IMG/VR virus record: IMGVR_UViG_3300032304_002285
Location: 62,001 to 126,000 of that record
DNA: 64,000 nt
Source of the DNA: a virus
Reading direction: 5' to 3' (one strand)
Below are positions 5,795 to 54,005 of the stretch, piece by piece. Made by a program: the position numbers and the translations under genes. Under the pieces are notes generated by a model, which was not told where the DNA came from, did no database searches, and saw only the letters and a list, made by a program, of their open reading frames with translations. The stretch's first letter is position 1, and each line of letters starts with the position of its first letter.

Positions 5795-5869
5795 TGCGGG
5801 ATATATCAGTGGTAGATTGCTAGCCTCATAAGCTAGATGTCGTGGGTTCGAGTCCCACTCCCGCTACCA
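5795..5869 (+). tRNA. tRNA with CAT anticodon (Met, or Ile if modified)
   Basis: A full cloverleaf is visible: anticodon stem CTAGC/GCTAG around the loop CTCATAA, T arm GTGGG-TTCGAGT-CCCAC and encoded CCA. Positions 1 and 72 are both T and cannot pair, a feature usually linked to initiator tRNA, but the anticodon stem lacks the three G-C pairs of initiators. The sequence does not settle whether C34 is modified to read AUA. Confidence 0.85.
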
Positions 5870-5879
5870 GTTTGAGATT

Positions 5880-5954
5880 CGGGTTGTCGTTTTAACATTT
5901 AAGACACAAGCCATGGGGCTTGAGATGCTGGTGTAAATCCAGCCGACTCGACCA
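5880..5954 (+). pseudogene. Degenerate tRNA-like sequence
   Basis: The seven-base acceptor CGGGTTG pairs with CGACTCG before A-CCA, and a T stem GCTGG/CCAGC is intact. However, the T loop is TGTAAAT rather than TTCRANY, the D loop has no GG, and the anticodon stem CAAGC/GCTTG encloses only six bases (CATGGG). It may be a decayed tRNA or a tRNA-shaped processing element. Confidence 0.45.
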
Positions 5955-5960
5955 AGTGTT

Positions 5961-5980
5961 GTTCTTTCAAAACTGAATAG
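5961..5980 (+). promoter_or_regulatory. boxA-like antitermination element, copy 1
   Basis: GTTCTTTCAAAACTGAATAG resembles the boxA leader of bacterial rRNA operons (GYTCTTTRAAAA). It lies 8 bases before the Ile tRNA. Two more copies precede tRNA genes at 6864 and 10441. Confidence 0.6.
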
Positions 5981-5988
5981 TTCTTTTT

Positions 5989-6062
5989 CGGCATGTAGCT
6001 CACTTGGTTAGAGCACCACCCTGATATGGTGGGGGTAGAAGGTTCGAGTCCTTCCATGCCGA
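5989..6062 (+). tRNA. tRNA-Ile (GAT)
   Basis: Acceptor CGGCATG/CATGCCG, D stem GCTC/GAGC, anticodon stem CCACC/GGTGG with loop CTGATAT, and T arm GAAGG-TTCGAGT-CCTTC. CCA is not encoded (CTT follows A73), so CCA must be added by an enzyme. Confidence 0.93.
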
Positions 6063-6078
6063 CTTATTTTCCCTGAAT

Positions 6079-6153
6079 GCCAGCATAGCTCAATGGTAGA
6101 GCACCTTACTTGTAATAAGGATGTCGGGGGTTCAAATCCCTCTGCTGGCTCCA
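6079..6153 (+). tRNA. tRNA-Thr (TGT)
   Basis: Acceptor GCCAGCA/TGCTGGC, anticodon stem CCTTA/TAAGG with loop CTTGTAA, T arm GGGGG-TTCAAAT-CCCTC, and encoded CCA. Confidence 0.93.
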
Positions 6154-6207
6154 TTTGCTTTTCTTGGTTTTAGTTCTATTTTGGGCTAAAGCAAATAGGG
6201 GGCGATT

Positions 6208-6846
6208 ATGAGAAGTGGGATGAGTTGTTCTGATGCTGGTAGGCTTGGTAAAGAAAAATCGCTTGCCTTGCAGCAAGCAATGAAACAAGAAAGAATAAAT
6301 AAATACTTAGAAAATCCGAAATTGTGTGGTACGTGTGGAGCAATCATACCATATAATAAAAGAGTAAATAATTTTTGTTCTTCTTCTTGTTTCGCATGCC
6401 ATAACAACAAACAAAGAAGTCTATTAAATCCTTGTGTTAATTTTTGTATGAATTGTGGTAAGGATCTGAAATCAAAAACTCTTTTGTTTTGTAGTGGAAG
6501 TTGTCATAAAAAACATTCACATAATAAATATATAGAGCGGTGGCTTGCTGGAGAAGAGTCTGGCGGTATTGGCAAGGATAAAGATATTACTAGCCATACA
6601 GTTCGTGACTGGGTTTTTAAAAAAAGTGGTGGTAAGTGTTCAGTTTGTGGCGGAAGTGATTGGATGGGCAAGAAGATGCCTTTGATTCTGGATCATATTG
6701 ATGGTCATTCAAAAAACAATCGTCCTGAAAATCTAAGGGCTGTTTGTGGTAATTGTGATATGCAGTTGCCGACATACAAAAGCAAAAACAAAGGAAATGG
6801 AAGGCATTATAGAAGGGAAAGGTATAAGAATGGATTGAGTTATTAG
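6208..6846 (+). CDS. HNH endonuclease (free-standing, in tRNA cluster)
   Basis: The 212-residue protein has several CxxC pairs that look like zinc fingers (LCGTCGAIIPYN, NFCMNCGKDL, KCSVCGGSDW) and a C-terminal HNH core. That core reads ILDHIDGHSKNNRPENLR then AVCGNCDMQ, giving DH as the first motif, the central N and the closing NCD. HNH enzymes of this type nick or cut DNA and often spread themselves as homing endonucleases between phage genes. It sits between Thr and Ala tRNA genes, a usual site for such elements. A GGGGG tract precedes the ATG. Confidence 0.85.
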   Translation: MRSGMSCSDAGRLGKEKSLALQQAMKQERINKYLENPKLCGTCGAIIPYNKRVNNFCSSSCFACHNNKQRSLLNPCVNFCMNCGKDLKSKTLLFCSGSCHKKHSHNKYIERWLAGEESGGIGKDKDITSHTVRDWVFKKSGGKCSVCGGSDWMGKKMPLILDHIDGHSKNNRPENLRAVCGNCDMQLPTYKSKNKGNGRHYRRERYKNGLSY

Positions 6847-6863
6847 ATTTGTGATTCAATTTA

Positions 6864-6883
6864 GTTCTTTAGTAATTGAATAG
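6864..6883 (+). promoter_or_regulatory. boxA-like antitermination element, copy 2
   Basis: GTTCTTTAGTAATTGAATAG lies 7 bases before tRNA-Ala. It matches the copies at 5961 and 10441 in GTTCTTT and TGAATAG with the same spacing. Confidence 0.55.
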
Positions 6884-6890
6884 TTTCTAT

Positions 6891-6967
6891 GGGGCATTAG
6901 CTCAGTTGGCTAGAGCGTTTGGTTTGCATCCAAAAGGCCATCGGTTCGAGCCCGATATGCTCCACCA
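6891..6967 (+). tRNA. tRNA-Ala (TGC)
   Basis: Acceptor GGGGCAT/ATGCTCC contains the G3-U70 wobble required by alanyl-tRNA synthetase. Anticodon stem TTTGG/CCAAA has loop TTTGCAT, the T arm is ATCGG-TTCGAGC-CCGAT, and CCA is encoded. Confidence 0.95.
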
Positions 6968-7007
6968 GTTTTTGTATCTTAGTTTATTGCCAAAGATGTT
7001 TGCAAGT

Positions 7008-7023
7008 TAAGCTATATAGCTTA
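7008..7023 (+). repeat. Perfect 16-base palindrome before HNH gene 2
   Basis: TAAGCTATATAGCTTA is a perfect palindrome 23 bases before the second HNH start, between tRNA-Ala and the ribosome site. It could be an operator or a cleavage site. Nothing else supports either role. Confidence 0.35.
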
Positions 7024-7046
7024 TATTCCTAAAAAAGGAGTAAGCC

Positions 7047-7538
7047 ATGCCAACTTGCAAAAGCTGTGGAGATAGATTTCCTACTTGGATCAAGATAGAT
7101 GGAAAGCAGAGATGTTTAAACAATAGAAAGTTTTGTTTAAAATGTTCTCCATTTGGAAGGCACAATACTAGTCCAACTCTTCATGTAGGATGCGAAAAAC
7201 TTTGCAATAAATGTGGTGAAAAAGATCCCAGTAAGTTTTATGGCAATAAGAGGCATATTTGTGGGAAATGCCATGCCAAGTATACTACTGAAAGAGGAAA
7301 ACGTAAAAAACAATTTGTTTGTGAAAAGCTGGGTGGTAAGTGTGTCTCATGTGGATATGATAAATATGTAGGTTCTCTTGATATTCATCATAAAGATCCA
7401 GCAAAGAAGGATTCTAATTTTAGGTCTAAAAGAGGATGGTCTGAAGAAAGAATATTAAAGGAAATAGAAAATTGTATCTTGCTTTGTCGGAATTGTCATG
7501 CAGCTTTTCATGCTGGAGAGTTAGCAATCGGTGTGTAG
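7047..7538 (+). CDS. HNH endonuclease, second copy type
   Basis: The 163-residue protein has Cys pairs that look like zinc ribbons (CKSCGDRF, CLKCSPF, CNKCGEKD, CGKCHAKY). Its C-terminal HNH core is LDIHHKDPAKKDSNFRS, then a spacer, then ILLCRNCHAAFHAG, with the HH, central N and NCH residues present. It has its own AAAGGAG site. It is unlike the HNH protein at 6208 outside the catalytic core, so the two look like separate arrivals. Its stop codon lies inside the acceptor stem of tRNA-Pro, so gene and tRNA overlap by 10 bases. Confidence 0.85.
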   Translation: MPTCKSCGDRFPTWIKIDGKQRCLNNRKFCLKCSPFGRHNTSPTLHVGCEKLCNKCGEKDPSKFYGNKRHICGKCHAKYTTERGKRKKQFVCEKLGGKCVSCGYDKYVGSLDIHHKDPAKKDSNFRSKRGWSEERILKEIENCILLCRNCHAAFHAGELAIGV

Positions 7539-7607
7539 CGCAGTTTGGTTTAGCGCGTCTGCCTTGGGCGCAGAAGGTCGGGGGTTCAAATCCCTCCACA
7601 CCGACCA
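7529..7607 (+). tRNA. tRNA-Pro (TGG)
   Basis: Acceptor CGGTGTG/CACACCG, D stem GCGC/GCGC, anticodon stem TCTGC/GCAGA with loop CTTGGGC, T arm GGGGG-TTCAAAT-CCCTC, and encoded CCA. The first 10 bases overlap the end of the upstream HNH gene. Confidence 0.94.
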
Positions 7608-7614
7608 TTTTCAT

Positions 7615-7915
7615 GAGGTTTCCAACTTGTGGCTGATTTCATCTTTTGTTCGGGATGAAGGCACTTACAAGAGGAGAACTGTAAGGTCCCAAGTAGGGCA
7701 GGAAGGGTAAGGCTGGGTCAATGCGGGTAAGAGTTTTCCTAACCGCAGTAGCCCGATATCTGGTAAATTAAAACACTGAACAACCAGATATAAGAGTAAA
7801 ATCTCTTCAATGCGGTGATGAACTTGTTGATCAGAGTTCTGAGCATTGTGGCTGAACAACTCGACTTGTTTGAGATGGGTAGGAAAGGTGGTTCCTTTCT
7901 TCTAGTTGGAAACCT
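7615..7915 (+). ncRNA. Unclassified structured RNA, about 300 nt, closed by a 13-bp helix
   Basis: GAGGTTTCCAACT at 7615-7627 pairs perfectly with AGTTGGAAACCTC at 7903-7915. In between lie ATATCTGGT/ACCAGATAT, CAATGC/GCATTG with inner GAACT/AGTTC, CTTACA/TGTAAG, TTCATC/GATGAA, TGCGG/CCGCA, AAGAG/CTCTT and GAAAGG/CCTTTC. There is no coding frame with a ribosome site. It fills the gap between tRNA-Pro and tRNA-Arg and does not show the conserved core of RNase P RNA. The folded domain is seen directly; the class is unknown. Confidence 0.6.
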
Positions 7916-7924
7916 CTCTATTCT

Positions 7925-7996
7925 GCTCCCGTAGTCTAATGGATAGGCACTTGCCTCCTAAGCAAGTCTATGAGAGTTCGATTCTCTCCGGGAGTA
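7925..7996 (+). tRNA. tRNA-Arg (CCT)
   Basis: Acceptor GCTCCCG/CGGGAGT with a G-U closing pair, anticodon stem CTTGC/GCAAG with loop CTCCTAA, and T arm GAGAG-TTCGATT-CTCTC. No encoded CCA. It reads AGG, a codon used heavily by genes in this window. Confidence 0.93.
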
Positions 7997-8049
7997 CTTT
8001 TTGTCTTTTATATTTATGGTCTAATAGGGATAATATTTTAGGAGAGACC

Positions 8050-8526
8050 ATGAAAAAGAATTTGAAGATTGCTGGTGAGATATTAAAGCTTGCTAAGGGT
8101 TTGGTGGGAATGACCAAACAAGAGGCAGATAAAGTCGCTTTTGTCATGAGGGAGTTTCCTAATCATAATAAAGTGAATGATAAGGTTAGGAAGGAAGTAA
8201 AGAAGTATAAGTTTTTAACCTTGGATAACATTAAGAAGTTTGGTCAATCTGCTTCTTTTATGAGAGGCATTGATGATTGGATAGATTATGTGATTTCGCA
8301 AGGTATGGAAAACGTTTATTCAACTAGCGGTTTTGATTATGAAGATGACAAGGATGTTCTCAATGCAATGAAGCATTATGAAGACATGGATTCTGAATTG
8401 TACAAAAAATCCAGAGATGTTTTAGAGGAAAGAGCGACAGATTTGGCTATAAATTCTGTAATGGAAGCACTCTATCAAGAGATTTCTTCTATTGAAAAGG
8501 CCATAGATAGGTCCAAAAAGTTATAA
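8050..8526 (+). CDS. Hypothetical helical protein with N-terminal tag helix
   Basis: The ATG at 8050 has an AGGAGAG site. An open frame reaching back to 7906 only reads through the Arg tRNA and is not used. The 158-residue product starts MKKNLKIAGEILKLAKGLVG, one of the clearest copies of the recurrent amphipathic helix. The rest is predicted mostly helical and charged, with no Cys and no known motif. It sits alone between two tRNA genes, with a possible -10 box (GATAAT) in GGGATAATATT about 15 bases before its ribosome site. Confidence 0.75.
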   Translation: MKKNLKIAGEILKLAKGLVGMTKQEADKVAFVMREFPNHNKVNDKVRKEVKKYKFLTLDNIKKFGQSASFMRGIDDWIDYVISQGMENVYSTSGFDYEDDKDVLNAMKHYEDMDSELYKKSRDVLEERATDLAINSVMEALYQEISSIEKAIDRSKKL

Positions 8527-8532
8527 TTAGTT

Positions 8533-8606
8533 GCGGGTTTAGCATAGTGGTAATGTGCCACCTTGCCAAGATGGTTACGCGGGTTCGACTCCCGCCATCT
8601 GCTCCA
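8533..8606 (+). tRNA. tRNA-Gly (GCC)
   Basis: Acceptor GCGGGTT/CATCTGC holds two G-U pairs and a mismatch at 7-66. Anticodon stem CCACC/GATGG has one C-A mismatch, with loop TTGCCAA. T arm GCGGG-TTCGACT-CCCGC is perfect and CCA is encoded. It starts 6 bases after the preceding stop codon. Confidence 0.85.
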
Positions 8607-8616
8607 AGGTTTTTAT

Positions 8617-8694
8617 TCTCCGGTAGCTCAATTGGCCAGAAGCACTTCACTCTTAATGAAGGGGTTGGGGGTTCAAGTCCCTCCCGGAGAACCA
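8617..8694 (+). tRNA. tRNA-Lys (CTT)
   Basis: Acceptor TCTCCGG/CCGGAGA, anticodon stem CTTCA/TGAAG with loop CTCTTAA, T arm GGGGG-TTCAAGT-CCCTC, and encoded CCA. The D arm has an extra A compared with usual spacing. Confidence 0.9.
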
Positions 8695-8708
8695 ATTTTT
8701 GTTTGTAT

Positions 8709-8785
8709 GCTCTGGTAGCTCAATTGGTTAGAGCACCAGCCTTTTAAGTTGGTTATTGGGAGTTCGAGTCTCCCCCAGAGCACCA
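8709..8785 (+). tRNA. tRNA-Lys (TTT)
   Basis: Acceptor GCTCTGG/CCAGAGC, D stem GCTC/GAGC, anticodon stem CCAGC/GTTGG with loop CTTTTAA, T arm GGGAG-TTCGAGT-CTCCC, and encoded CCA. Confidence 0.94.
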
Positions 8786-8792
8786 ATTTTAT

Positions 8793-8866
8793 TCCCTCGT
8801 GGTGTAATGGTAGCACGAAACACTGTTAATGTTTCTGTCTTGGTTCAAATCCAGGCGAGGGAGCCA
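8793..8866 (+). tRNA. tRNA-Asn (GTT)
   Basis: Acceptor TCCCTCG/CGAGGGA, D stem GGTG/GCAC, anticodon stem AAACA/TGTTT with loop CTGTTAA, T arm CTTGG-TTCAAAT-CCAGG, and encoded CCA. Confidence 0.94.
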
Positions 8867-8874
8867 AATACCTA

Positions 8875-9007
8875 CATGCTCAATTGCCAGTCTGACGCAT
8901 GAGGTTTTAATGACTGGCTAAAGTCTGGGTGTATTAGGAAACTTACGGTGATGGAACCCAGAACAGAGGGTAAAGCCTCTGCCAAAACTTCAAATAAAAG
9001 GTTTTGG
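8875..9007 (+). ncRNA. Unclassified structured RNA with pseudoknot potential
   Basis: CATGC (8875-8879) pairs with GCATG (8897-8901), and GCCAGTC (8886-8892) with GACTGGC (8912-8918). The two helices interleave, as in an H-type pseudoknot. Three further hairpins follow: TCTGGGT/ACCCAGA, CAGAGG/CCTCTG and CCAAAAC/GTTTTGG. It lies between tRNA-Asn and tRNA-His with no coding frame. Confidence 0.5.
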
Positions 9008-9034
9008 TAAACCGTTTTAGAGATTTCTATGGAT

Positions 9035-9110
9035 GGTGGTTTTGTTGTAAAGGAAGCATGGATGGTTGTGAACCATCAGGTGTAGGGTTCAAGTCCCACA
9101 TTCCACCCCA
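9035..9110 (+). tRNA. tRNA-His (GTG)
   Basis: Anticodon stem GATGG/CCATC surrounds the loop TTGTGAA. The acceptor has the extra 5' G (position -1, base 9035) opposite C73, as expected for histidine tRNA, and CCA is encoded. Acceptor pairs 5-68 and 6-67 are T-T mismatches, and the T stem has a bulged A. It is more diverged than its neighbours. Confidence 0.8.
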
Positions 9111-9130
9111 AGTTTTTAGCGTAGGTGTTT

Positions 9131-9207
9131 GGGGGTATAGCTCAATTGGCCAGAGCATCGGTTTGTCACGCCGAAGGTTGCGGGTTCGATTCCCGCTACT
9201 CCCGCCA
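9131..9207 (+). tRNA. tRNA-Asp (GTC)
   Basis: Acceptor GGGGGTA/TACTCCC, D stem GCTC/GAGC, anticodon stem TCGGT/GCCGA with loop TTGTCAC, T arm GCGGG-TTCGATT-CCCGC, and G73-CCA. Confidence 0.94.
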
Positions 9208-9216
9208 GTTTTATAA

Positions 9217-9293
9217 GGGATTGTAGCTCAATTGGATAGAGCATCTGATTACGAATCAGAAGGTTGGGAGTTCAACTCTCCCCATTCCCACCA
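9217..9293 (+). tRNA. tRNA-Arg (ACG)
   Basis: Acceptor GGGATTG/CATTCCC has one T-T mismatch. Anticodon stem TCTGA/TCAGA has loop TTACGAA, the T arm is GGGAG-TTCAACT-CTCCC, and CCA is encoded. A34 would need conversion to inosine by host TadA to read CGC. Confidence 0.93.
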
Positions 9294-9298
9294 GATTT

Positions 9299-9370
9299 GT
9301 CCCGTTCGATCAATGGTAAGGTCATTAGGTTCTCAGCCTAGGGATAGCGGTTCGACTCCGCTACGGGATA
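9299..9370 (+). tRNA. tRNA-Glu (CTC)
   Basis: Acceptor GTCCCGT/ACGGGAT, D stem GATC/GGTC, anticodon stem TTAGG/CCTAG with loop TTCTCAG, and T arm AGCGG-TTCGACT-CCGCT. No encoded CCA. Confidence 0.9.
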
Positions 9371-9386
9371 CTTTAAGAAGGGATTT

Positions 9387-9460
9387 GACCCGTTGGAGGA
9401 AATGGATAACTCACTTGGTTTTCATCCAAGAGATTAGCGGTTCAACCCCGCTACGGGTCA
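9387..9460 (+). tRNA. tRNA-Glu (TTC)
   Basis: Acceptor GACCCGT/ACGGGTC, anticodon stem CTTGG/CCAAG with loop TTTTCAT, and T arm AGCGG-TTCAACC-CCGCT. No encoded CCA. Its 3' half is almost the same as the adjacent Glu(CTC) tRNA, which suggests tandem duplication. Confidence 0.9.
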
Positions 9461-9468
9461 CTTTAACG

Positions 9469-9720
9469 CCACTAAGGGACTAGGTTGCAAGTAGTCCAGA
9501 GTGGAAATCATCCAGGATCTTGGATAATCTCTTTACATAGGGATTATAGAAGAGAATGGGTGTAGTCGGAACTTGTGGGCAGGAAAGTTGGGCATACTCT
9601 TCGCCATCCGACTCTAAATAATTCACGTAATGTCACGAAAGCAGGGTACGGCTGTATAGCCCGATGGAGATTGTCCTGCTTGCTGGAGGGTGATGGTCCT
9701 AGCCCCTCCAATTTTTTTCA
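9469..9720 (+). ncRNA. Unclassified structured RNA ending in a terminator
   Basis: An extended hairpin CCACT-GGACTA / TAGTCC-AGTGG opens the element. ATAATC/GATTAT follows. GAAGAG (9549) pairs with CTCTTC (9597) while AGTCGG (9564) pairs with CCGACT (9608), an interleaved, pseudoknot-like pattern. AGCAGG/CCTGCT encloses GGCT-GTAT-AGCC, and a terminator ends the run. There is no plausible coding frame. It lies after tRNA-Glu and before a promoter. No known class is recognised. Confidence 0.5.
9685..9718 (+). terminator. Rho-independent terminator inside the tRNA island
   Basis: GGAGGG pairs with CCCCTCC (one base extra on the 3' side) over a 12-base loop and is followed by AATTTTTTT. A new promoter starts 20 bases later. 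Confidence 0.75.
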
Positions 9721-9736
9721 AAACTTTTTTAGGATC

Positions 9737-9769
9737 TTTGGATTTAGAAGTAGTTCTGGGTGATATAAT
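9737..9769 (+). promoter_or_regulatory. Promoter, TTTGGA-type, variant
   Basis: TTTGGA at 9737 and GGGTGATATAAT ending at 9769. The spacer is 18 bases to TGATAT or 21 to the better TATAAT. It follows a terminator and precedes the gene at 9806. Confidence 0.55.
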
Positions 9770-9805
9770 GATGTAAAGAGAACGTAGTGAGAAGGGGATT
9801 CGAGA

Positions 9806-10084
9806 ATGAGTGAAAGTGTTGAAGATCTGAAGCGTCAGGTTGCCCAGTGGAAATCGGTTGCGGCTTATCTGGCTGAGTGTCATGCTGCTTCTGCTGAGAC
9901 TGTTGCTGAGCAGAAGAAGTCTTCCAAGTATGAGAAGAAGCGCCATGCTGAGATTTGCAAGAAGGCGGCTATGATGTTGAAGCATGGGGATCTTGTTGGG
10001 GTAGTTGATCGGAGGTATGCCAAAGAAGGTTTCATTGAAGTGATTGAGCGTTGTGAGTTGGCGAAGGTTGAGTGTGAGAAGTAA
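9806..10084 (+). CDS. Small coiled-coil-like protein (92 aa)
   Basis: The gene has its own promoter-like sequence and a GAAGGGG ribosome site, and ends 11 bases before tRNA-Gly. The product is almost entirely helical and charged (DLKRQVAQWKSVAAYLAE, then EQKKSSKYEKKRHAEICK) and has four Cys residues spread along the chain. No family is recognised. Its placement inside the tRNA island could mean a role in RNA handling, but nothing in the sequence shows this. Confidence 0.7.
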   Translation: MSESVEDLKRQVAQWKSVAAYLAECHAASAETVAEQKKSSKYEKKRHAEICKKAAMMLKHGDLVGVVDRRYAKEGFIEVIERCELAKVECEK

Positions 10085-10095
10085 GTTTTGATAGT

Positions 10096-10169
10096 GCAGG
10101 TATCGTATAGTGGCAATACCCTAGTTTTCCAAACTAGCGCGGTGGGTTCGATTCCCACTACCTGCTCCA
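10096..10169 (+). tRNA. tRNA-Gly (TCC)
   Basis: Acceptor GCAGGTA/TACCTGC, D stem GTAT/ATAC, anticodon stem CTAGT/ACTAG with loop TTTCCAA, T arm GTGGG-TTCGATT-CCCAC, and encoded CCA. Confidence 0.94.
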
Positions 10170-10181
10170 AAGGTTTAAGAT

Positions 10182-10328
10182 TGGTCGGCAAGGTTTGGAT
10201 GTTCTGTGAAAGCTGACACTTGACTGTTATCAGATAGGATCGCAACCTGTTTGAGTCAAGATGCCTGGGGAACAGGCTTCAGGCGGAACGCAAGAATATC
10301 ACGGGTTCAAATCCCGTCCGATCAACCA
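10182..10328 (+). ncRNA. tRNA-like RNA of 147 nt with a large internal domain
   Basis: The 3' end is a normal tRNA end: T arm ACGGG-TTCAAAT-CCCGT, then CCGATCA-A-CCA. The acceptor pairs with TGGTCGG at 10182-10188, 130 bases upstream. The interior has no ordinary anticodon arm; instead CTTGACT/AGTCAAG and GCCTG/CAGGC helices are seen. After the 5' acceptor comes CAAGGTTTGGAT, similar to CATGGTTTCGAT of the nearby tmRNA. It could be a tRNA with an insertion or a tmRNA-like molecule without an evident tag frame. Confidence 0.5.
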
Positions 10329-10350
10329 ATTTTGAGGTCTTAATCGTACG

Positions 10351-10419
10351 GTGTTGAGCAGAACACAGAGGCGATGAATCCCATAGAACTGCTAATTCTA
10401 TGATGGGAAAGACTTCATC
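10351..10419 (+). ncRNA. Hairpin pair between tRNA-like element and tRNA-Val
   Basis: GTGTT/AACAC forms a small hairpin. GATGAA/TTCATC then encloses CCCATAGAA / TTCTATG-A-TGGG around the seven-base loop CTGCTAA. The loop looks like an anticodon loop reading GCT (Ser), but no D or T arm is present. Confidence 0.35.
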
Positions 10420-10440
10420 TAAGTTTTGAGTAAGAGGTTA

Positions 10441-10460
10441 GTTCTTTAAAAATTGAATAG
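10441..10460 (+). promoter_or_regulatory. boxA-like antitermination element, copy 3
   Basis: GTTCTTTAAAAATTGAATAG, 6 bases before tRNA-Val, is the copy closest to a bacterial rRNA boxA (GCTCTTTAAAAA). Confidence 0.65.
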
Positions 10461-10466
10461 TTCTGT

Positions 10467-10543
10467 GGGCAGTTAGCTCAGTTGGTTAGAGCATTTGGTC
10501 TACACCCAAAATGTCGGGGGTTCGAATCCCTCACTGCCTACCA
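10467..10543 (+). tRNA. tRNA-Val (TAC) with C33
   Basis: Acceptor GGGCAGT/ACTGCCT, D stem GCTC/GAGC, anticodon stem TTTGG/CCAAA with loop TCTACAC, T arm GGGGG-TTCGAAT-CCCTC, and encoded CCA. Position 33 is C instead of the almost universal T. Confidence 0.88.
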
Positions 10544-10554
10544 TTTTAAGTATT

Positions 10555-10639
10555 GGCCGGGTGGCGAAAAGGCAGACGCAACAGACTTAAAATCTGTCGG
10601 ATTTTATCCGTACGGGTTCAAATCCCGTCCCGGCTACCA
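10555..10639 (+). tRNA. tRNA-Leu (TAA)
   Basis: A class II tRNA with a long variable arm (CGGAT/ATCCG). Acceptor GGCCGGG/CCCGGCT, anticodon stem ACAGA/TCTGT with loop CTTAAAA, T arm ACGGG-TTCAAAT-CCCGT, and encoded CCA. It reads TTA, the commonest Leu codon in the first 4 kb. Confidence 0.95.
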
Positions 10640-10643
10640 ATTT

Positions 10644-10860
10644 CAAATAAGTGGTCCCTGCTTGATCGTCCCAGTGATAAAAGCAAAGATCATTAAAAAT
10701 TGCTGCCACTTATTTGAGAACTTTTCGGCTTTCTTGTAAAGCCGATGGTGGAGGCGGTTAGGGAAACCTAATTGCCCTAGCGACACATGCTGGACTAGTG
10801 AGGCTGTAGTCTCATGAAACAAGTTGTGTGGCTTTCCGGTAAGAAGTAACCGGGCTTTCG
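10644..10860 (+). ncRNA. Unclassified structured RNA upstream of tmRNA
   Basis: A perfect 11-bp helix CAAATAAGTGG (10644-10654) / CCACTTATTTG (10706-10716) closes a domain with an inner TGATC/GATCA helix. It is followed by hairpins CGGCTTT/AAAGCCG, TTAGG-GAAA-CCTAA and CCGG-TAAGAAGTAA-CCGG. There is no coding frame. It fills the space between tRNA-Leu and the tmRNA and could be a separate RNA or a 5' leader removed during maturation. Confidence 0.5.
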
Positions 10861-10867
10861 TTCAATT

Positions 10868-11271
10868 GGGCCTGACATGGTTTCGATCAAGTGAATGAGG
10901 GTTAGGATTGCATGCAGAGGATGATCGTTGGCCTCTTAAAACTTCGATCAAGTAAGTAACTGCGGAAACTCTTGAGTTCCCCGCTATGCCCATTGCTGCC
11001 TGATCTAGGGTAGTAAAGGGTATGGTCTAAGCCATCAGCAAAGTCTATAAGGCTGATGGGGTTGTCTTAATGATTCGCTCTTGAGACACACAGAATGATA
11101 GGCTGGCTTCAAGGTGATGCCGGATAGCTAAGAAGCGAGAGTTCTGACGGCTGGATGCGCTTAACCTGCTGTGAGGGGAAAAGGCATTGAGAAAAACAAA
11201 TCACAGACAAGCATGTAGAGTCTTGCCGGAAAGCATTTGAGACCGGGGTTCGACTCCCCGCAGGTCCACCA
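10868..11271 (+). ncRNA. ssrA: Transfer-messenger RNA (tmRNA)
   Basis: The 404-nt gene has a tRNA-like end: 5' GGGCCTG pairs with 3' CAGGTCC before A-CCA, including the G3-U70 pair that makes it an alanine acceptor. T arm CGGGG-TTCGACT-CCCCG is perfect. Conserved tmRNA segments are visible: GGTTTCGAT near the 5' end, GTTGGCCTCTTAAAA before the tag, and AGACAAGCATGTAG before the 3' domain. The tag frame at 10962-11003 encodes AETLEFPAMPIAA then TGA, ending in the hydrophobic-Ala-Ala signal for ClpXP-type proteolysis. A later helix CCATCAGC/GCTGATGG fits the pseudoknot region. tmRNA with SmpB rescues stalled ribosomes. A terminator follows. Confidence 0.95.
10962..11003 (+). other. tmRNA tag-peptide reading frame
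   Basis: The resume codon is GCG after AGTAAGTAACT. The 13 codons give AETLEFPAMPIAA and end at TGA. With the alanine carried by tmRNA, the expected tag is A-AETLEFPAMPIAA. Confidence 0.85.
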
Positions 11272-45760: not shown

Positions 45761-46060
45761 GTGAATCCACAGATACAAGAAGGAACAACTAGCATTCTCA
45801 TCCTTGCTTCTGGGGATATTATGGGTTTTTGTTGTTGTTCTGATGGATTTATTTACAGATATGATCCTTGTACTGTAAAAATTCAACCGTATGCTTTTAA
45901 GTATGATCCTTGTATTGTGTGGTTTTATAATTTTACTTATGAATATGCGGCTTGTACTTATTATGAAACTCAGCTTTCTTATGAATATGCGGCTTGTACT
46001 TATTATGAAACTCAGCTTTCTTATGAATATGCAGAATGTACTTATCCAAGTTATTATTAA
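45761..46060 (+). CDS. Cys/Tyr-rich 14-residue repeat protein
   Basis: It starts at GTG 45761 with AAGGA upstream. From about residue 34 the 99-residue product consists of five tandem 14-residue units: YDPCTVKIQPYAFK, YDPCIVWFYNFTYE, YAACTYYETQLSYE (twice) and a partial YAECTYPSYY. Each has Tyr at position 1 and Cys at position 4. The N-terminus has a CCC cluster (GFCCCSDGFIY). A regular Y-x-x-C ladder suggests a stacked beta structure with metal or disulfide links. It lies among tip proteins. No family is recognised. Confidence 0.65.
   Translation: MNPQIQEGTTSILILASGDIMGFCCCSDGFIYRYDPCTVKIQPYAFKYDPCIVWFYNFTYEYAACTYYETQLSYEYAACTYYETQLSYEYAECTYPSYY
45938..46021 (+). repeat. Tandem 42-base repeat
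   Basis: Two exact or nearly exact 42-base units (TTATGAATATGCGGCTTGTA and following) encode the two identical 14-residue repeats. Confidence 0.8.
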
Positions 46061-50117: not shown

Positions 50118-53100
50118 ATGTCTAGAATGTGGGTTCGCAATGATGGCTTTTTAATTATTGAATGTGATTATGAGCAACGGAATTTGGTAAAAGAGATAGG
50201 TGGGAGATGGGATGTAGTAGAAAGGGCTTGGGTTGTTGCATTTAGTATTTCCAATGTGGAATATTTAGTTGACGAGATTGATTCTTTAACGGTTGATCAG
50301 TCTGTTGAAGATAAGCTGCATCAACAGATAGAAAAAGAAGACAAGCTAAATAAAATCCGGGAAATGTCCAAACAGGATGTTCCGGTTCGTCTTCTTGTCC
50401 CTGGTCTTAAGGAGAATTGTAGACTCTATAATTACCAAAAACTGGGTGTTGTCTATTCTTTAACAAATGCAGAAGGGGTATTAATTGCCGACGAAATGGG
50501 TTTGGGAAAATTTTGTGCTATAAACACCCCCGTATTAACAGCTTATGGCTGGCAACCAATTGGTTCTTTGAAGGTCGGGGACATGGTTTATTCGAGGGCT
50601 GGAACCCTTAGCCGGGTAAATGGAGTTTATCCTCAGGGTGTGAAAGAATTACTGAAAGTAACTTTTAGTGATGGGTTTTCATGTGAGTGTGGGTGGGAGC
50701 ATCTTTGGATAGCCCAGACGGACAACAATGCGAAGAGGAAGCAGGGGTGGAGAGTTCTCGACACTCGACAATTATTTGGTGACTTACACTACAAGGATAA
50801 AAGGGCCAAGTGGCGGATACCCTTGGTCGAACCAATCGCCTATAACACTAAGACGTATATCATACCACCATATCTAATGGGAGTGTTGCTTGGGGATGGT
50901 TCCTTGACAGATGGAGTAACCTTTGTTCCTGGGGATGATGAAACTCCATTTCTTGTACAGAAGGCTGTACCTCCGGGTTATAGCTTGCATAAGAATGCTG
51001 ATTATGGAACGTCAACTCGGTATTCTATTGTTTATAAAGGCAGTGGATACGAGAACCCACTAAAAACTCAAATTGTTAAATATGGACTAAATGTTACTGG
51101 GGAAAGGAAGTTTATTCCTCATGAATATCTTGAAGGAAGCATAGAACAACGGAAGCAGTTGTTGGCTGGCTTATTGGATACAGATGGTTCTGCAATGAAA
51201 GCTAGGACTAGGTTTTCAACAGTATCGGAACGTCTTGCTGATGACGTTATCGAGCTTGTTCATAGTCTGGGTGGAATGGCTACTAAGTCTCTTGTTCCTG
51301 GCAGATTAAGGGTAAGGGATGGGAAGCAGGTTCAGGAGCAGGATTGTTGGCAATTGGTTGTTAGAACTAGTTTTAATCCATTTTCCCGTCCATCTTCTAT
51401 TGCGAAGTGGAAGAGATCATCAAAACTTGTCAGGAATATTGTAAGTATTGAGCCTGTACGGTATGATGATGCGGTATGTATTGCTGTTGATTCCAAAGAT
51501 CATTCGTATGTTATTCAGCATCATATTGTAACACACAATACCCTGCAAGGTCTTGCTATTTCGTTGGTTAGGAAGAATAAGAACGGGGCAAAAAAGTGTC
51601 TTATTGTCACTCCTGCTTCTTTAAAGTACAATTGGCCAATTGAAATCGAAAAATTTACAGATGAGAAGTTTGTGGTAATTGATGGGAGTCCAGAAGAGAG
51701 GATTGCTCAATGGATGCGGGATGACGTTTATTATTACGTTGTTAATTTTGAGCTTATTCTTGAGGATTTGTTTGGAGGTAGGGAATATAAAGAAGATCCA
51801 GATGATGATGAAGAGAAGACTGCCAGAAAAAAAGAATTAAAAGCTAAGGCTCAATTTAGGAAGAAAATTTTAAGTTCTGTAAAAGAACGAGATTGGGATA
51901 TGATCCTTGTGGATGAATCCCATGCCCTTAAATCTCATGCTAGCAAGAGAAGTAAGTGTATAAAGCAATTGAAGAGTAAATTCCGAGTGGCTTTAACAGG
52001 TACTCCGATGGATGGGAGATTAGAAGAGTTACATTCAGTTATGGAATTTGTTTATCCTGGGTTGTTGGAATCAAGAACCAGATTTCTTCAGAAGCATGCC
52101 ATTACTGATTTCTGGGGAAAGGTGACTGGGTATAAAGATATTGATGATGTAAAGAAGCGGATAGCTCATTGTTTTATTCGCAGATTAAAGGCTGATGTTT
52201 TAAAGGACTTGCCTAATAAAATCTATCAGAATAGGATTGTGGTTCTATCAAAGGAAGAAGAAAAAATCTACAAGGCGTTAGCTTCTTCGGGTCATGTAGC
52301 AACCCAAGATACTGAAGCCATGGTTACTGTGATCAGATGTAAGCAGTTTTGTGATTATCCTGGATTAATTGGTGAGAATTGCAAGGTGAATTCTAAGCTT
52401 GAGGCTTTTAAGGAGATTTTGGATGAGGTAATTATTCAAAATGGGCATAAGGTTCTGGTTTTTAGTCAGTATAAGCAGATGATAGATGTTTTGGTGAAAG
52501 TAATGGAAGAGATGAATCTGAAATATCTTCGGATTGACGGAGATACACCAAAGCAGCTTCGAGCGGGGATGCAAAAGCAATTCAACGAGGATAAATCAAT
52601 AGATTCGATGATTGGCACAGAGGCTATGTCTACTGGTTTGAATTTCACCTCTGCTGATTATGTAATTAATTATGATGACAATTGGGCTCCTGCTATTATG
52701 GCTCAGAGGGAGGATCGGTGTGTTATAGAGGGTCAGTATGTCAATACGGATCGCGGGATGGTTAAGATTGAGGATGTTAAGACTGGGGATATGGTTTTAA
52801 CTCATCGGGGTAGATATCGGAAGGTATTAGACGTATGGAATAAACTTCATAGATCTAATACAACTGGTGGATTAACAACGGAAATCAAATACAGAAGATA
52901 TGGCTATCCATTAAAAGTAACCCATGATCATTTAGTTTTGATCCTTAGGGGTGAAAAAATAGATTGGATGGAGGCAGTTGATGTCCGTCCTCGTGATTTT
53001 TTATTATCTCCTATTTTGTCTGAAGAAAGAAATGACCCTGGTGAATTGGAATTTCCAGAGGAGTTTTCTTTTAATAAGATGCAGAGATTAAATGGTTCTG

Positions 53101-54005
53101 CTGAATTTGTTAATGGTAGATATCATCCATTGCCAAGAGCCATCAAGATAGATGACGACTTCCTTTTTGTTGTTGGTTGGTATTTGGCGGAAGGGTTTTG
53201 TTCTATTTCAAATGACAAAGGCAAGTTTGTTTCTTTTTCTGGGCATGTTAAGGAGATGAGTATTCTGGAAAGGATAAAAAAGTATTCTAAGGAAATACTT
53301 GGAATAAATGGAACAATAAATAAGCCAGCAACTAACGGGATAGAATTAAGAGTATATAGCTCTGAGTTGGCTTTTTGGTTTGAAAGTTTATTTGGGGGCG
53401 AATGTTTTAAAAAACAAATACCCCACGATTGGCTTGTAAAGTGGGATATAAAATATTTAGAAAAAATATATGGAGCATATGTCCAGGGGGATGGGTATTT
53501 TAGAAGGAACACTAAAGAATGGGTTACTGTTTCTCCAATTCTTTCTTTACAAATGACGAAAATAACCGAAATGATGGGTTATCCTTCAACGTTGAGGCAG
53601 GTTGATAATTGCCATAATAAGGGCCATTGGATTGGCGCTTTAACGGCAAATGGAGATTACAGAAGTTCGCCTCTTTTAAATAAGAAAGTGGATGGTTATG
53701 TATGTCTTCCTGTTTCTGAGGTTATGACAAGAATAGAGACCAGTAAGAAAGTTCGGGTTTATGATTTAACTGTTGAGGAAGATTCTTCCTTTGTTGTTGG
53801 AAGGGCGGCTGTTCACAATTGTCATCGCCTTGGCCAGAAAAATGTAGTTAATGTAATTAATTTTGTTTGTAAAAATACGATCGAGGAAAGGATTCGTGGT
53901 GTTTTATATGGAAAGTCTGTTGTTTCAGCGGAGACACTTGGGGATGATGTAGACGATATGGTTTTACATCGGTTGGGACCTAAAGATATTGCTAAATTGC
54001 TTTAA
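50118..54005 (+). CDS. SNF2-family helicase with two inteins
   Basis: The 1295-residue precursor holds two inteins (residues 132-474 and 868-1234), so the spliced helicase has about 585 residues. Extein motifs: Walker A DEMGLGK|TLQ (broken by intein 1), motif Ia VTPASLKYNWP, motif II LVDESHALKS, motif III ALTGTPMDG, motif V IGTEAMSTGLNFTSADYV, and motif VI REDR|CHRLGQ (broken by intein 2). SNF2 ATPases move on dsDNA; phage members are linked to replication, recombination or remodelling of bound proteins. The N-terminal 60 residues (EIGGRWDVVERAW) resemble a small accessory domain. Both inteins sit in motifs needed for ATPase activity, so splicing is required for function. Confidence 0.92.
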   Translation: MSRMWVRNDGFLIIECDYEQRNLVKEIGGRWDVVERAWVVAFSISNVEYLVDEIDSLTVDQSVEDKLHQQIEKEDKLNKIREMSKQDVPVRLLVPGLKENCRLYNYQKLGVVYSLTNAEGVLIADEMGLGKFCAINTPVLTAYGWQPIGSLKVGDMVYSRAGTLSRVNGVYPQGVKELLKVTFSDGFSCECGWEHLWIAQTDNNAKRKQGWRVLDTRQLFGDLHYKDKRAKWRIPLVEPIAYNTKTYIIPPYLMGVLLGDGSLTDGVTFVPGDDETPFLVQKAVPPGYSLHKNADYGTSTRYSIVYKGSGYENPLKTQIVKYGLNVTGERKFIPHEYLEGSIEQRKQLLAGLLDTDGSAMKARTRFSTVSERLADDVIELVHSLGGMATKSLVPGRLRVRDGKQVQEQDCWQLVVRTSFNPFSRPSSIAKWKRSSKLVRNIVSIEPVRYDDAVCIAVDSKDHSYVIQHHIVTHNTLQGLAISLVRKNKNGAKKCLIVTPASLKYNWPIEIEKFTDEKFVVIDGSPEERIAQWMRDDVYYYVVNFELILEDLFGGREYKEDPDDDEEKTARKKELKAKAQFRKKILSSVKERDWDMILVDESHALKSHASKRSKCIKQLKSKFRVALTGTPMDGRLEELHSVMEFVYPGLLESRTRFLQKHAITDFWGKVTGYKDIDDVKKRIAHCFIRRLKADVLKDLPNKIYQNRIVVLSKEEEKIYKALASSGHVATQDTEAMVTVIRCKQFCDYPGLIGENCKVNSKLEAFKEILDEVIIQNGHKVLVFSQYKQMIDVLVKVMEEMNLKYLRIDGDTPKQLRAGMQKQFNEDKSIDSMIGTEAMSTGLNFTSADYVINYDDNWAPAIMAQREDRCVIEGQYVNTDRGMVKIEDVKTGDMVLTHRGRYRKVLDVWNKLHRSNTTGGLTTEIKYRRYGYPLKVTHDHLVLILRGEKIDWMEAVDVRPRDFLLSPILSEERNDPGELEFPEEFSFNKMQRLNGSAEFVNGRYHPLPRAIKIDDDFLFVVGWYLAEGFCSISNDKGKFVSFSGHVKEMSILERIKKYSKEILGINGTINKPATNGIELRVYSSELAFWFESLFGGECFKKQIPHDWLVKWDIKYLEKIYGAYVQGDGYFRRNTKEWVTVSPILSLQMTKITEMMGYPSTLRQVDNCHNKGHWIGALTANGDYRSSPLLNKKVDGYVCLPVSEVMTRIETSKKVRVYDLTVEEDSSFVVGRAAVHNCHRLGQKNVVNVINFVCKNTIEERIRGVLYGKSVVSAETLGDDVDDMVLHRLGPKDIAKLL
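50511..51539 (+). other. Intein 1 (class 3-like) with LAGLIDADG endonuclease
   Basis: The 343-residue intein interrupts GLGK|T of Walker A. It starts FCAINTPVLTAYGW, with Phe at position 1, aligning with class 3 inteins (xLALDTPxPTxxGW) that lack Cys1. The WCT signature is present: Trp in block B (CGWEHLW), Cys in block F (AVCIAVD) and Thr in block G (IVTHN). Splicing at Phe1 and Asn343 restores GLGKTLQ exactly. The endonuclease motifs are YLMGVLLGDGSL and LLAGLLDTDGSA. Confidence 0.85.
52719..53819 (+). other. Intein 2 (class 1) with LAGLIDADG endonuclease
   Basis: The 367-residue intein starts CVIEGQYVNTDRGMVKIE and ends VHN before Cys+1. Block B is LKVTHDHLV, with Thr and His in the TxxH position. 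Splicing gives EDRCHRLGQ, a perfect SNF2 motif VI. Endonuclease motifs are VVGWYLAEG and IYGAYVQGDG. It is unrelated in detail to intein 1, so the two entered separately. Confidence 0.93.

What the first reader, a model, noticed from the sequence alone, without database searches (positions are those of the whole stretch)
50511..51539. Class 3-like intein with Phe at position 1 in the Walker A motif of an SNF2 helicase
Splicing only restores GLGKT if the intein starts at Phe, not at the Cys that follows. The intein shows the Trp-Cys-Thr triplet of class 3 inteins (blocks B, F, G), which do not need Cys1. Class 3 inteins are a minor group mostly tied to phages, and a Phe1 member is unusual to my knowledge.
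Basis: partly seen in the sequence, partly recalled or inferred. Interest (0 to 1): 0.75.

Follow-up and report, generated by a model that had tools for sequence, protein, structure and literature searches.

The report
Phage helicase intein starting with phenylalanine
A phage DNA helicase gene carries a self-splicing protein insert (a class 3 intein) whose first residue is phenylalanine; class 3 inteins do not use that residue, and relatives begin with many different amino acids, phenylalanine included, so this is a sound but fairly ordinary member of a known group.

Summary
ORF 50118-54005 (+) encodes an SNF2-type helicase interrupted at GLGK|T of its Walker A motif by a 343-residue intein, 50511-51539, starting with Phe. 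Removing Phe1-Asn343 restores GLGKT, which intein-free homologues carry unbroken. The class 3 signature is intact: Trp66 (B:12), Cys323 (F:4), Thr341 (G:5), plus Thr+1. In 164 distinct relatives Cys F:4 is invariant, Trp is in 161 and Thr in 163. A confident model (pLDDT 93.7) matches class 3 DnaB inteins (Z 19) with Phe1 on their residue 1. A signature-masked tree puts it with class 3 (100/99.9).

The claim of rarity is weak. Residue 1 drifts freely: Ala 172, Gly 16, Ser 15, Glu 12, Leu 9, Phe 7, others 24, of 255. Phe1 occurs in at least four unconnected places, none of the others with Cys2; the nearest relative (51%) starts with Glu. Cys2 is therefore very unlikely to be the nucleophile. 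The class and the Walker A K|T site are established in the literature. New member of a known kind; splicing was not tested. The gene also carries a second, class 1 intein in motif VI.

The parts
50118..54005 (+). SNF2-type helicase precursor, 1295 aa with two inteins; 585 aa after removal of both
   Evidence: ORF; Pfam SNF2-rel_dom 1e-35 and Helicase_C 1.6e-20; PHROG 62 DNA helicase 1.4e-93
50511..51539 (+). Intein 1 (343 aa), class 3 type, Phe1, inserted between Lys and Thr of Walker A (GLGK|T)
   Evidence: Junctions; relatives; model and fold match
50511..50513 (+). Phe1, codon TTT, first residue of the intein (not catalytic)
   Evidence: Junction arithmetic; register with Ala1/Glu1/Leu1/Met1 relatives; structural superposition on residue 1 of 6bs8
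50700..50702 (+). His64 = block B:10
   Evidence: Invariant in 164/164 relatives; codon CAT
50706..50708 (+). Trp66 = block B:12, W of WCT
   Evidence: 161/164 relatives; codon TGG
50868..51188 (+). LAGLIDADG homing endonuclease region from PYLMGVLLGDGSL to LLAGLLDTDG, both motifs intact
   Evidence: Pfam Hom_end 6.1e-6 and LAGLIDADG_3 4e-5; D129 in 157/164 and D223 in 164/164 relatives; PI-SceI fold match Z 28
51477..51479 (+). Cys323 = block F:4, presumed initiating nucleophile, C of WCT
   Evidence: Invariant in 164/164 relatives; role by homology to proven class 3 inteins (PMC5222942)
51531..51539 (+). Thr341-His342-Asn343 = block G:5-7
   Evidence: T 163/164, H 162/164, N 164/164
51540..51542 (+). 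Thr+1, the Walker A Thr, second branch point
   Evidence: Codon ACC; Thr+1 in 160 of 173 loci, Ser in 11
52719..53819 (+). Intein 2 (367 aa), class 1 type: Cys1, THDH block B, Asp at F:4 (VYDL), VHN|Cys+1, inserted in SNF2 motif VI (EDR|CHRLGQ)
   Evidence: TIGR01443 intein_Cterm 2.6e-4; homologues read (E/T)DRxHRIG unbroken

Best explanation
The element is a full-length class 3 intein with a LAGLIDADG homing endonuclease, lodged at the common Lys|Thr position of a P-loop. Inferred splicing path: Cys323 (block F:4), helped by His64 and Thr341 and held by the Trp66 pocket, attacks the Lys-Phe1 peptide bond. The N-extein passes to Cys323 as a thioester, then to Thr+1; Asn343 cyclises and releases the intein, and an O-N acyl shift joins GLGK to T. 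Phe1 is only the leaving-side residue of the first scissile bond, and Cys2 plays no chemical part. The intein leaves the ATPase dead until it is removed; the endonuclease spreads the element into intein-free GLGKT alleles. Shown here: anatomy, register, conservation, predicted fold and phylogenetic placement. Inferred: every chemical step, and endonuclease activity.
For: Exact Walker A restoration only with Phe1 as first residue. WCT, His B:10 and Asn G:7 intact and nearly invariant in 164 relatives. +1 is Thr, matching the class 3 habit of Ser/Thr+1 (PMC5222942). Relatives at GK|T start in the same register with Ala, Glu, Leu, Met, Val, Gly, Ser, Gln, Asp or Cys. Phe1 relatives L046, L186/L242, L205, L238, L246 and L283 have Gly or Leu at position 2, not Cys. 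Model pLDDT 93.7, with Phe1 on residue 1 of Msm DnaB class 3 intein 6bs8, Z 19.0, rmsd 1.6 over 123 residues. Family profile finds WCT-grafted gp41-1 (1.2e-20) above native gp41-1 (6.8e-17), then class 3 Mch/Msm DnaB inteins (1.5e-16 to 1.2e-15). Tree with residue 1 and WCT masked separates class 1 from class 3 at 100/99.9, this intein on the class 3 side.
Against: No splicing experiment was possible. The closest relative is only 51% identical, so residue-level conservation comes from fairly distant sequences. Rooted on a few phage class 1 inteins, this intein and its Glu1 sister branch at the base of class 3 (97/94), so it is not deeply nested; seven outgroup rows give a weak root. Pfam Intein_splicing does not score this intein. 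One documented class 3-like intein (Arsp-FB24) proved inactive (PMC3196547), although that one lacks Cys F:4.
Confidence: 0.93

Rival explanations
1. It is a class 1 intein whose first residue is the Cys at position 2, so splicing leaves Phe in the product (GLGKFTLQ).
For: A Cys lies right after Phe, and CAINTPVLT superficially resembles a class 1 start.
Against: Register: TPVLT..G of block A lines up with Ala1/Glu1/Met1 relatives only if Phe is residue 1. Only 4 of 259 family members have Cys at 2. Structural alignment puts Phe on residue 1. The product would break Walker A, unlike the intein-free homologues examined. F:4 is Cys with W B:12 and T G:5, as in class 3.
Confidence: 0.02
2. It is a decayed class 3 intein that no longer splices, leaving the helicase inactive.
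For: An inactive class 3-type intein is known (PMC3196547). A bulky Phe next to the scissile bond could be imagined to slow the first step.
Against: All catalytic residues, both LAGLIDADG motifs and the 1295-aa frame are intact. Phe1 recurs in other intact inteins with intact exteins. The fold is predicted with high confidence.
Confidence: 0.04
3. It splices by a class 2 route: Thr+1 attacks the N-terminal junction directly, without Cys323.
For: It lacks a residue-1 nucleophile, which is also true of class 2.
Against: Known class 2 inteins are KlbA orthologues with Ala1, Ser G:6, Asp F:4 and Cys+1 (PMC4031507); here G:6 is His, F:4 is Cys and +1 is Thr, with the WCT triplet.
Confidence: 0.01

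Closest known systems
Class 3 inteins, e.g. Mycobacterium smegmatis DnaBi1 (PDB 6bs8) and M. chimaera DnaB1 (6rix/6riy)
   Same: WCT triplet, His B:10, Asn G:7, no residue-1 nucleophile, P-loop Lys|Ser/Thr insertion, Hint fold (Z 18-19)
   Different: Those are mini-inteins with Ala1, and DnaBi1 has Asp at B:7; this one carries a LAGLIDADG endonuclease, has Phe1, Gly at B:7 and sits in an SNF2 helicase
Deinococcus radiodurans Snf2 intein (proven class 3; cited in PMC3196547 and PMC5222942)
   Same: Class 3 intein in an SNF2-family protein
   Different: Sequence not retrieved here; insertion site and first residue not compared
L015/L016 intein (IMGVR_UViG_3300046010_010789 and IMGVR_UViG_3300045131_001403)
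   Same: 51% identical, same GLGK|T site of an SNF2 helicase, WCT intact
   Different: Starts with Glu; no second intein in motif VI
Phe1 class 3-type inteins L046, L186/L242, L205, L238, L246, L283
   Same: Phe1, WCT, K|T Walker A site
   Different: Gly or Leu at position 2; L283 lies in a DnaB-like primase-helicase rather than SNF2
PI-SceI (VMA1 intein)
   Same: Whole-length fold of splicing domain plus LAGLIDADG endonuclease (Z 25-28)
   Different: Class 1 (Cys1), different extein

Membership tests
Class 3 inteins | Trp at block B:12 | tested here: met
   Trp66; 161/164 relatives
Class 3 inteins | Cys at block F:4 | tested here: met
   Cys323; 164/164 relatives
Class 3 inteins | Thr at block G:5 | tested here: met
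   Thr341; 163/164 relatives
Class 3 inteins | No Ser/Thr/Cys nucleophile at intein position 1 | tested here: met
   Phe1 by junction arithmetic, register and structural superposition
Class 3 inteins | Ser or Thr at +1 (usual in the class) | tested here: met
   Thr+1; definition from PMC5222942
Class 3 inteins | Groups with class 3 and apart from class 1 in a tree of splicing blocks | tested here: met
   Split 100/99.9 with residue 1 and WCT masked; unmasked run 97/49, not starred; basal position within class 3; few class 1 rows, and which relatives count as class 3 was judged by signature
Class 3 inteins | Block F branched intermediate; Cys F:4 required for splicing | not testable with these tools
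   Needs expression and mutagenesis
Class 1 inteins | Cys/Ser/Thr at position 1 | tested here: not met
   Phe1
Class 2 inteins (KlbA type) | KlbA orthologue with Ala1, Ser at G:6, Asp F:4, Cys+1 | tested here: not met
   His342, Phe1, Thr+1, Cys323, SNF2 extein; definition from PMC4031507
LAGLIDADG homing endonucleases | Two LAGLIDADG motifs with acidic residues in a PI-SceI-like fold | tested here: met
   LMGVLLGDGS and LLAGLLDTDG; Pfam hits; fold match to PI-SceI
LAGLIDADG homing endonucleases | Cleaves the intein-free allele | not testable with these tools
   Needs purified protein and DNA

The most novel reading that the evidence does not exclude
The Phe1-Cys2 intein and its Glu1 sister represent a deep class 3 lineage near the split from class 1, in which Cys2 next to the scissile bond has a regulatory role (for example as a redox partner of Cys323) and bulky hydrophobic residues at position 1 are adaptive in SNF2 P-loops. 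Bulky residue 1 is indeed commoner at DxxGxGK|T sites (17/45 against 8/210, Fisher p 3e-9), but independent-pair tests on the tree do not support it.
Probability: 0.06. Interest if true: 0.5.

Novelty: new member of a known kind. Interest (0 to 1): 0.25.

Why it matters
It is clean comparative evidence that residue 1 of class 3 inteins is not under catalytic constraint. About 60 changes of that residue are needed on one family tree, and it takes aliphatic, aromatic, acidic, small and polar states, while Cys F:4 never changes. That makes these inteins natural material for splicing or N-cleavage tools that tolerate any first residue, and adds Phe1 examples in metagenomic phages. It does not change the picture of intein mechanism.

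Tried and rejected
Cys2 as nucleophile: rejected by register, the product sequence and lack of conservation. Adaptive bulky residue 1 in SNF2 sites: raw count strong, but not supported once tree relatedness is taken into account. Single-sequence search of viral contigs found only the same phage; an alignment was needed. Phage-record loci could not be used for structure prediction, so the model alignment was rebuilt from IMG/VR and genome loci. Catera and Bethlehem records were not held, so homology to those experimentally proven class 3 inteins was tested only through other mycobacteriophage records (ValleyTerrace, Ejimix, Traaww1), whose identity with the studied proteins is not verified. The Tori 2010/2011 and Brace 2010 papers are not held, so published lists of class 3 first residues could not be checked for Phe. 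The one match to a word beginning 'Phe1' among held papers was not among the passages displayed and was not read further. The first tree of splicing domains lacked the Glu1 sister and included a very long branch; it was rebuilt. Nucleotide-level selection tests were not attempted: the nearest relative is 51% at protein level, so synonymous sites would be saturated.

Full report
What is there. ORF 50118-54005 on the + strand encodes 1295 residues. Pfam and PHROGs call it an SNF2/DNA helicase. It is interrupted twice. Intein 1, 50511-51539, 343 residues, lies between Lys and Thr of the Walker A motif: ADEMGLGK|FCAINTPVLTAYGW...HHIVTHN|TLQGLAIS. Intein 2, 52719-53819, 367 residues, lies in motif VI: AQREDR|CVIEGQ...AAVHN|CHRLGQKN. 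Removing both gives a 585-residue helicase. Intein-free phage homologues (Bacillus phage G gp594, a gut phage contig, Thermus phage phiLo) run unbroken through both sites, reading GLGKT and (E/T)DRxHRIG. The window lies at 62001-126000 of a 180,758-base virus record; the same DNA is in a second IMG/VR contig with one mismatch in 11,594 bases and none in the intein.

Residue 1. Only removal of Phe1-Asn343 restores GLGKT; removal from Cys2 would leave GLGKFT. The register of block A agrees: relatives at the same GK|T site begin AQPLDxxVLTPxG, MASVNTPVLTPSG, ELFIDTKVLTRDG or LLNVNTTIFTPSG, so that T10 and G13 line up with TPVLTAYG only if Phe is residue 1. The predicted structure (31 aligned sequences, pLDDT 93.7, pTM 0.92) superposes on the class 3 Msm DnaB intein 6bs8 with Z 19.0 and rmsd 1.6 over 123 residues, model residue 7 (Phe1) on chain residue 1 and the terminal Asn on chain residue 139. 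Whole-length matches are to PI-SceI-type inteins (Z 25-28), because of the endonuclease domain.

Class signature. The literature defines class 3 by Trp B:12, Cys F:4, Thr G:5, no residue-1 nucleophile and usually Ser/Thr+1, with Cys F:4 starting the reaction (PMC5222942, PMC4031507, PMC3196547). All are met: Trp66 two residues after His64, Cys323 in AVCIAV, Thr341 in VTHN, Thr+1. Across 164 distinct relatives Cys F:4 and His B:10 never vary, Trp B:12 holds in 161, Thr G:5 in 163, Asn G:7 in 164. A profile of the family finds gp41-1 with an engineered WCT motif (E 1e-20) ahead of native gp41-1 (7e-17), and then the class 3 DnaB inteins. A tree of the splicing blocks with residue 1 and the three signature columns masked separates seven class 1 inteins from 47 class 3-type ones at 100/99.9, this intein on the class 3 side. 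Within class 3, this intein and its Glu1 sister branch first (97/94), which I treat as weak because the root rests on few rows; the first, unmasked version gave 97/49 for the class split.

Is Phe1 special? tblastn found related sequence in 819 of 50,697 phage records, 541 of them covering at least 80% of the query (some of the others match the endonuclease half only). In 255 distinct inteins residue 1 is Ala 172, Gly 16, Ser 15, Glu 12, Leu 9, Phe 7, Cys 6, Met 5, Val 4, Pro 4, Gln 3, Asp 2. On a tree of these, residue 1 needs about 60 changes. Phe1 occurs in at least four unconnected places: this intein (sister L279, the same contig as L015, Glu1, 51%), L046 (sister Ala1), a group L242/L205/L246/L238 mixed with Gly1 and Ala1 members, and L283 in a DnaB-like helicase. 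None of the other Phe1 inteins has Cys at position 2. Residue 1 therefore looks like a freely drifting position. Bulky hydrophobic residue 1 is enriched at DxxGxGK|T sites (17/45 against 8/210), but not in a test of independent pairs, so no adaptive claim is made.

How it most likely works. By homology to tested class 3 inteins: Cys323 attacks the Lys-Phe1 bond, the N-extein moves to Cys323, then to Thr+1, Asn343 cyclises, and GLGK is joined to T. The P-loop is broken until then, and motif VI is broken by intein 2, so the helicase needs two independent splicing reactions, one of class 3 and one of class 1 type, before it can hydrolyse ATP. M. smegmatis DnaB is a known case of one class 3 P-loop intein and one class 1 intein in the same protein (PMC6195587). 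The LAGLIDADG motifs are intact, so homing into intein-free alleles is plausible.

Known or new. P-loop insertion between Lys and Ser/Thr is called classic (PMC5050341), class 3 inteins are tied to phages, and a class 3 Snf2 intein is known from D. radiodurans (named and cited in PMC3196547 and PMC5222942; the primary paper was not held). This is a new member of a known kind. Published tables of class 3 first residues could not be read, so I cannot say whether Phe1 has been listed before; in public data it is not unique.

Limits. Nothing here tests splicing or cleavage. The assignment of relatives to class 3 is by signature, not by experiment. Counts come from capped scans ranked by similarity and are not a random sample.

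Noticed in passing
window 52719-53819: Second intein in the same helicase, class 1 type (Cys1, Asp F:4, Cys+1), in SNF2 motif VI next to the arginine finger; only distant relatives in phage records (best about 26%) and none found in IMG/VR beyond the same phage.
   Followed up: partly
L324:4038-6542 (G000 about 170037-172541): A glycosyltransferase-like ORF carries a 385-residue intein-like insert (CVDSSMRV...FISHN|S) with a LAGLIDADG hit; an unusual extein to my knowledge.
   Followed up: partly
L324:9613-13419 (G000 about 175612-179418): A ribonucleotide-reductase-like ORF carries a 430-residue class 1-like intein ending CKN|C, with Lys instead of His at the penultimate position. The phage thus has at least four inteins.
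   Followed up: partly
L006, L161, L173, L211, L224, L254: Class 3-type inteins by similarity that start with Cys1 yet end in THN; they could splice by either route and would be good tests of the class 1/class 3 boundary.
   Followed up: no
L056, L061, L066, L143: Relatives with Cys F:4 but Phe or His instead of Trp B:12, or SSN instead of THN at the end.
   Followed up: no
L068 and L012 (Pseudomonas phage PA1C): Relatives in which the intein frame is broken by stops or a frameshift; in PA1C the helicase is annotated as two overlapping pieces.
   Followed up: no
window 5795-11271: Array of 17 tRNA genes followed by a tmRNA gene with tag peptide AETLEFPAMPIAA in a phage genome.
   Followed up: no
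window 45932-46045: Short near-perfect repeats within a small ORF (repeated YEYAACTYYETQLS units), seen as self-matches and in the translation.
   Followed up: no
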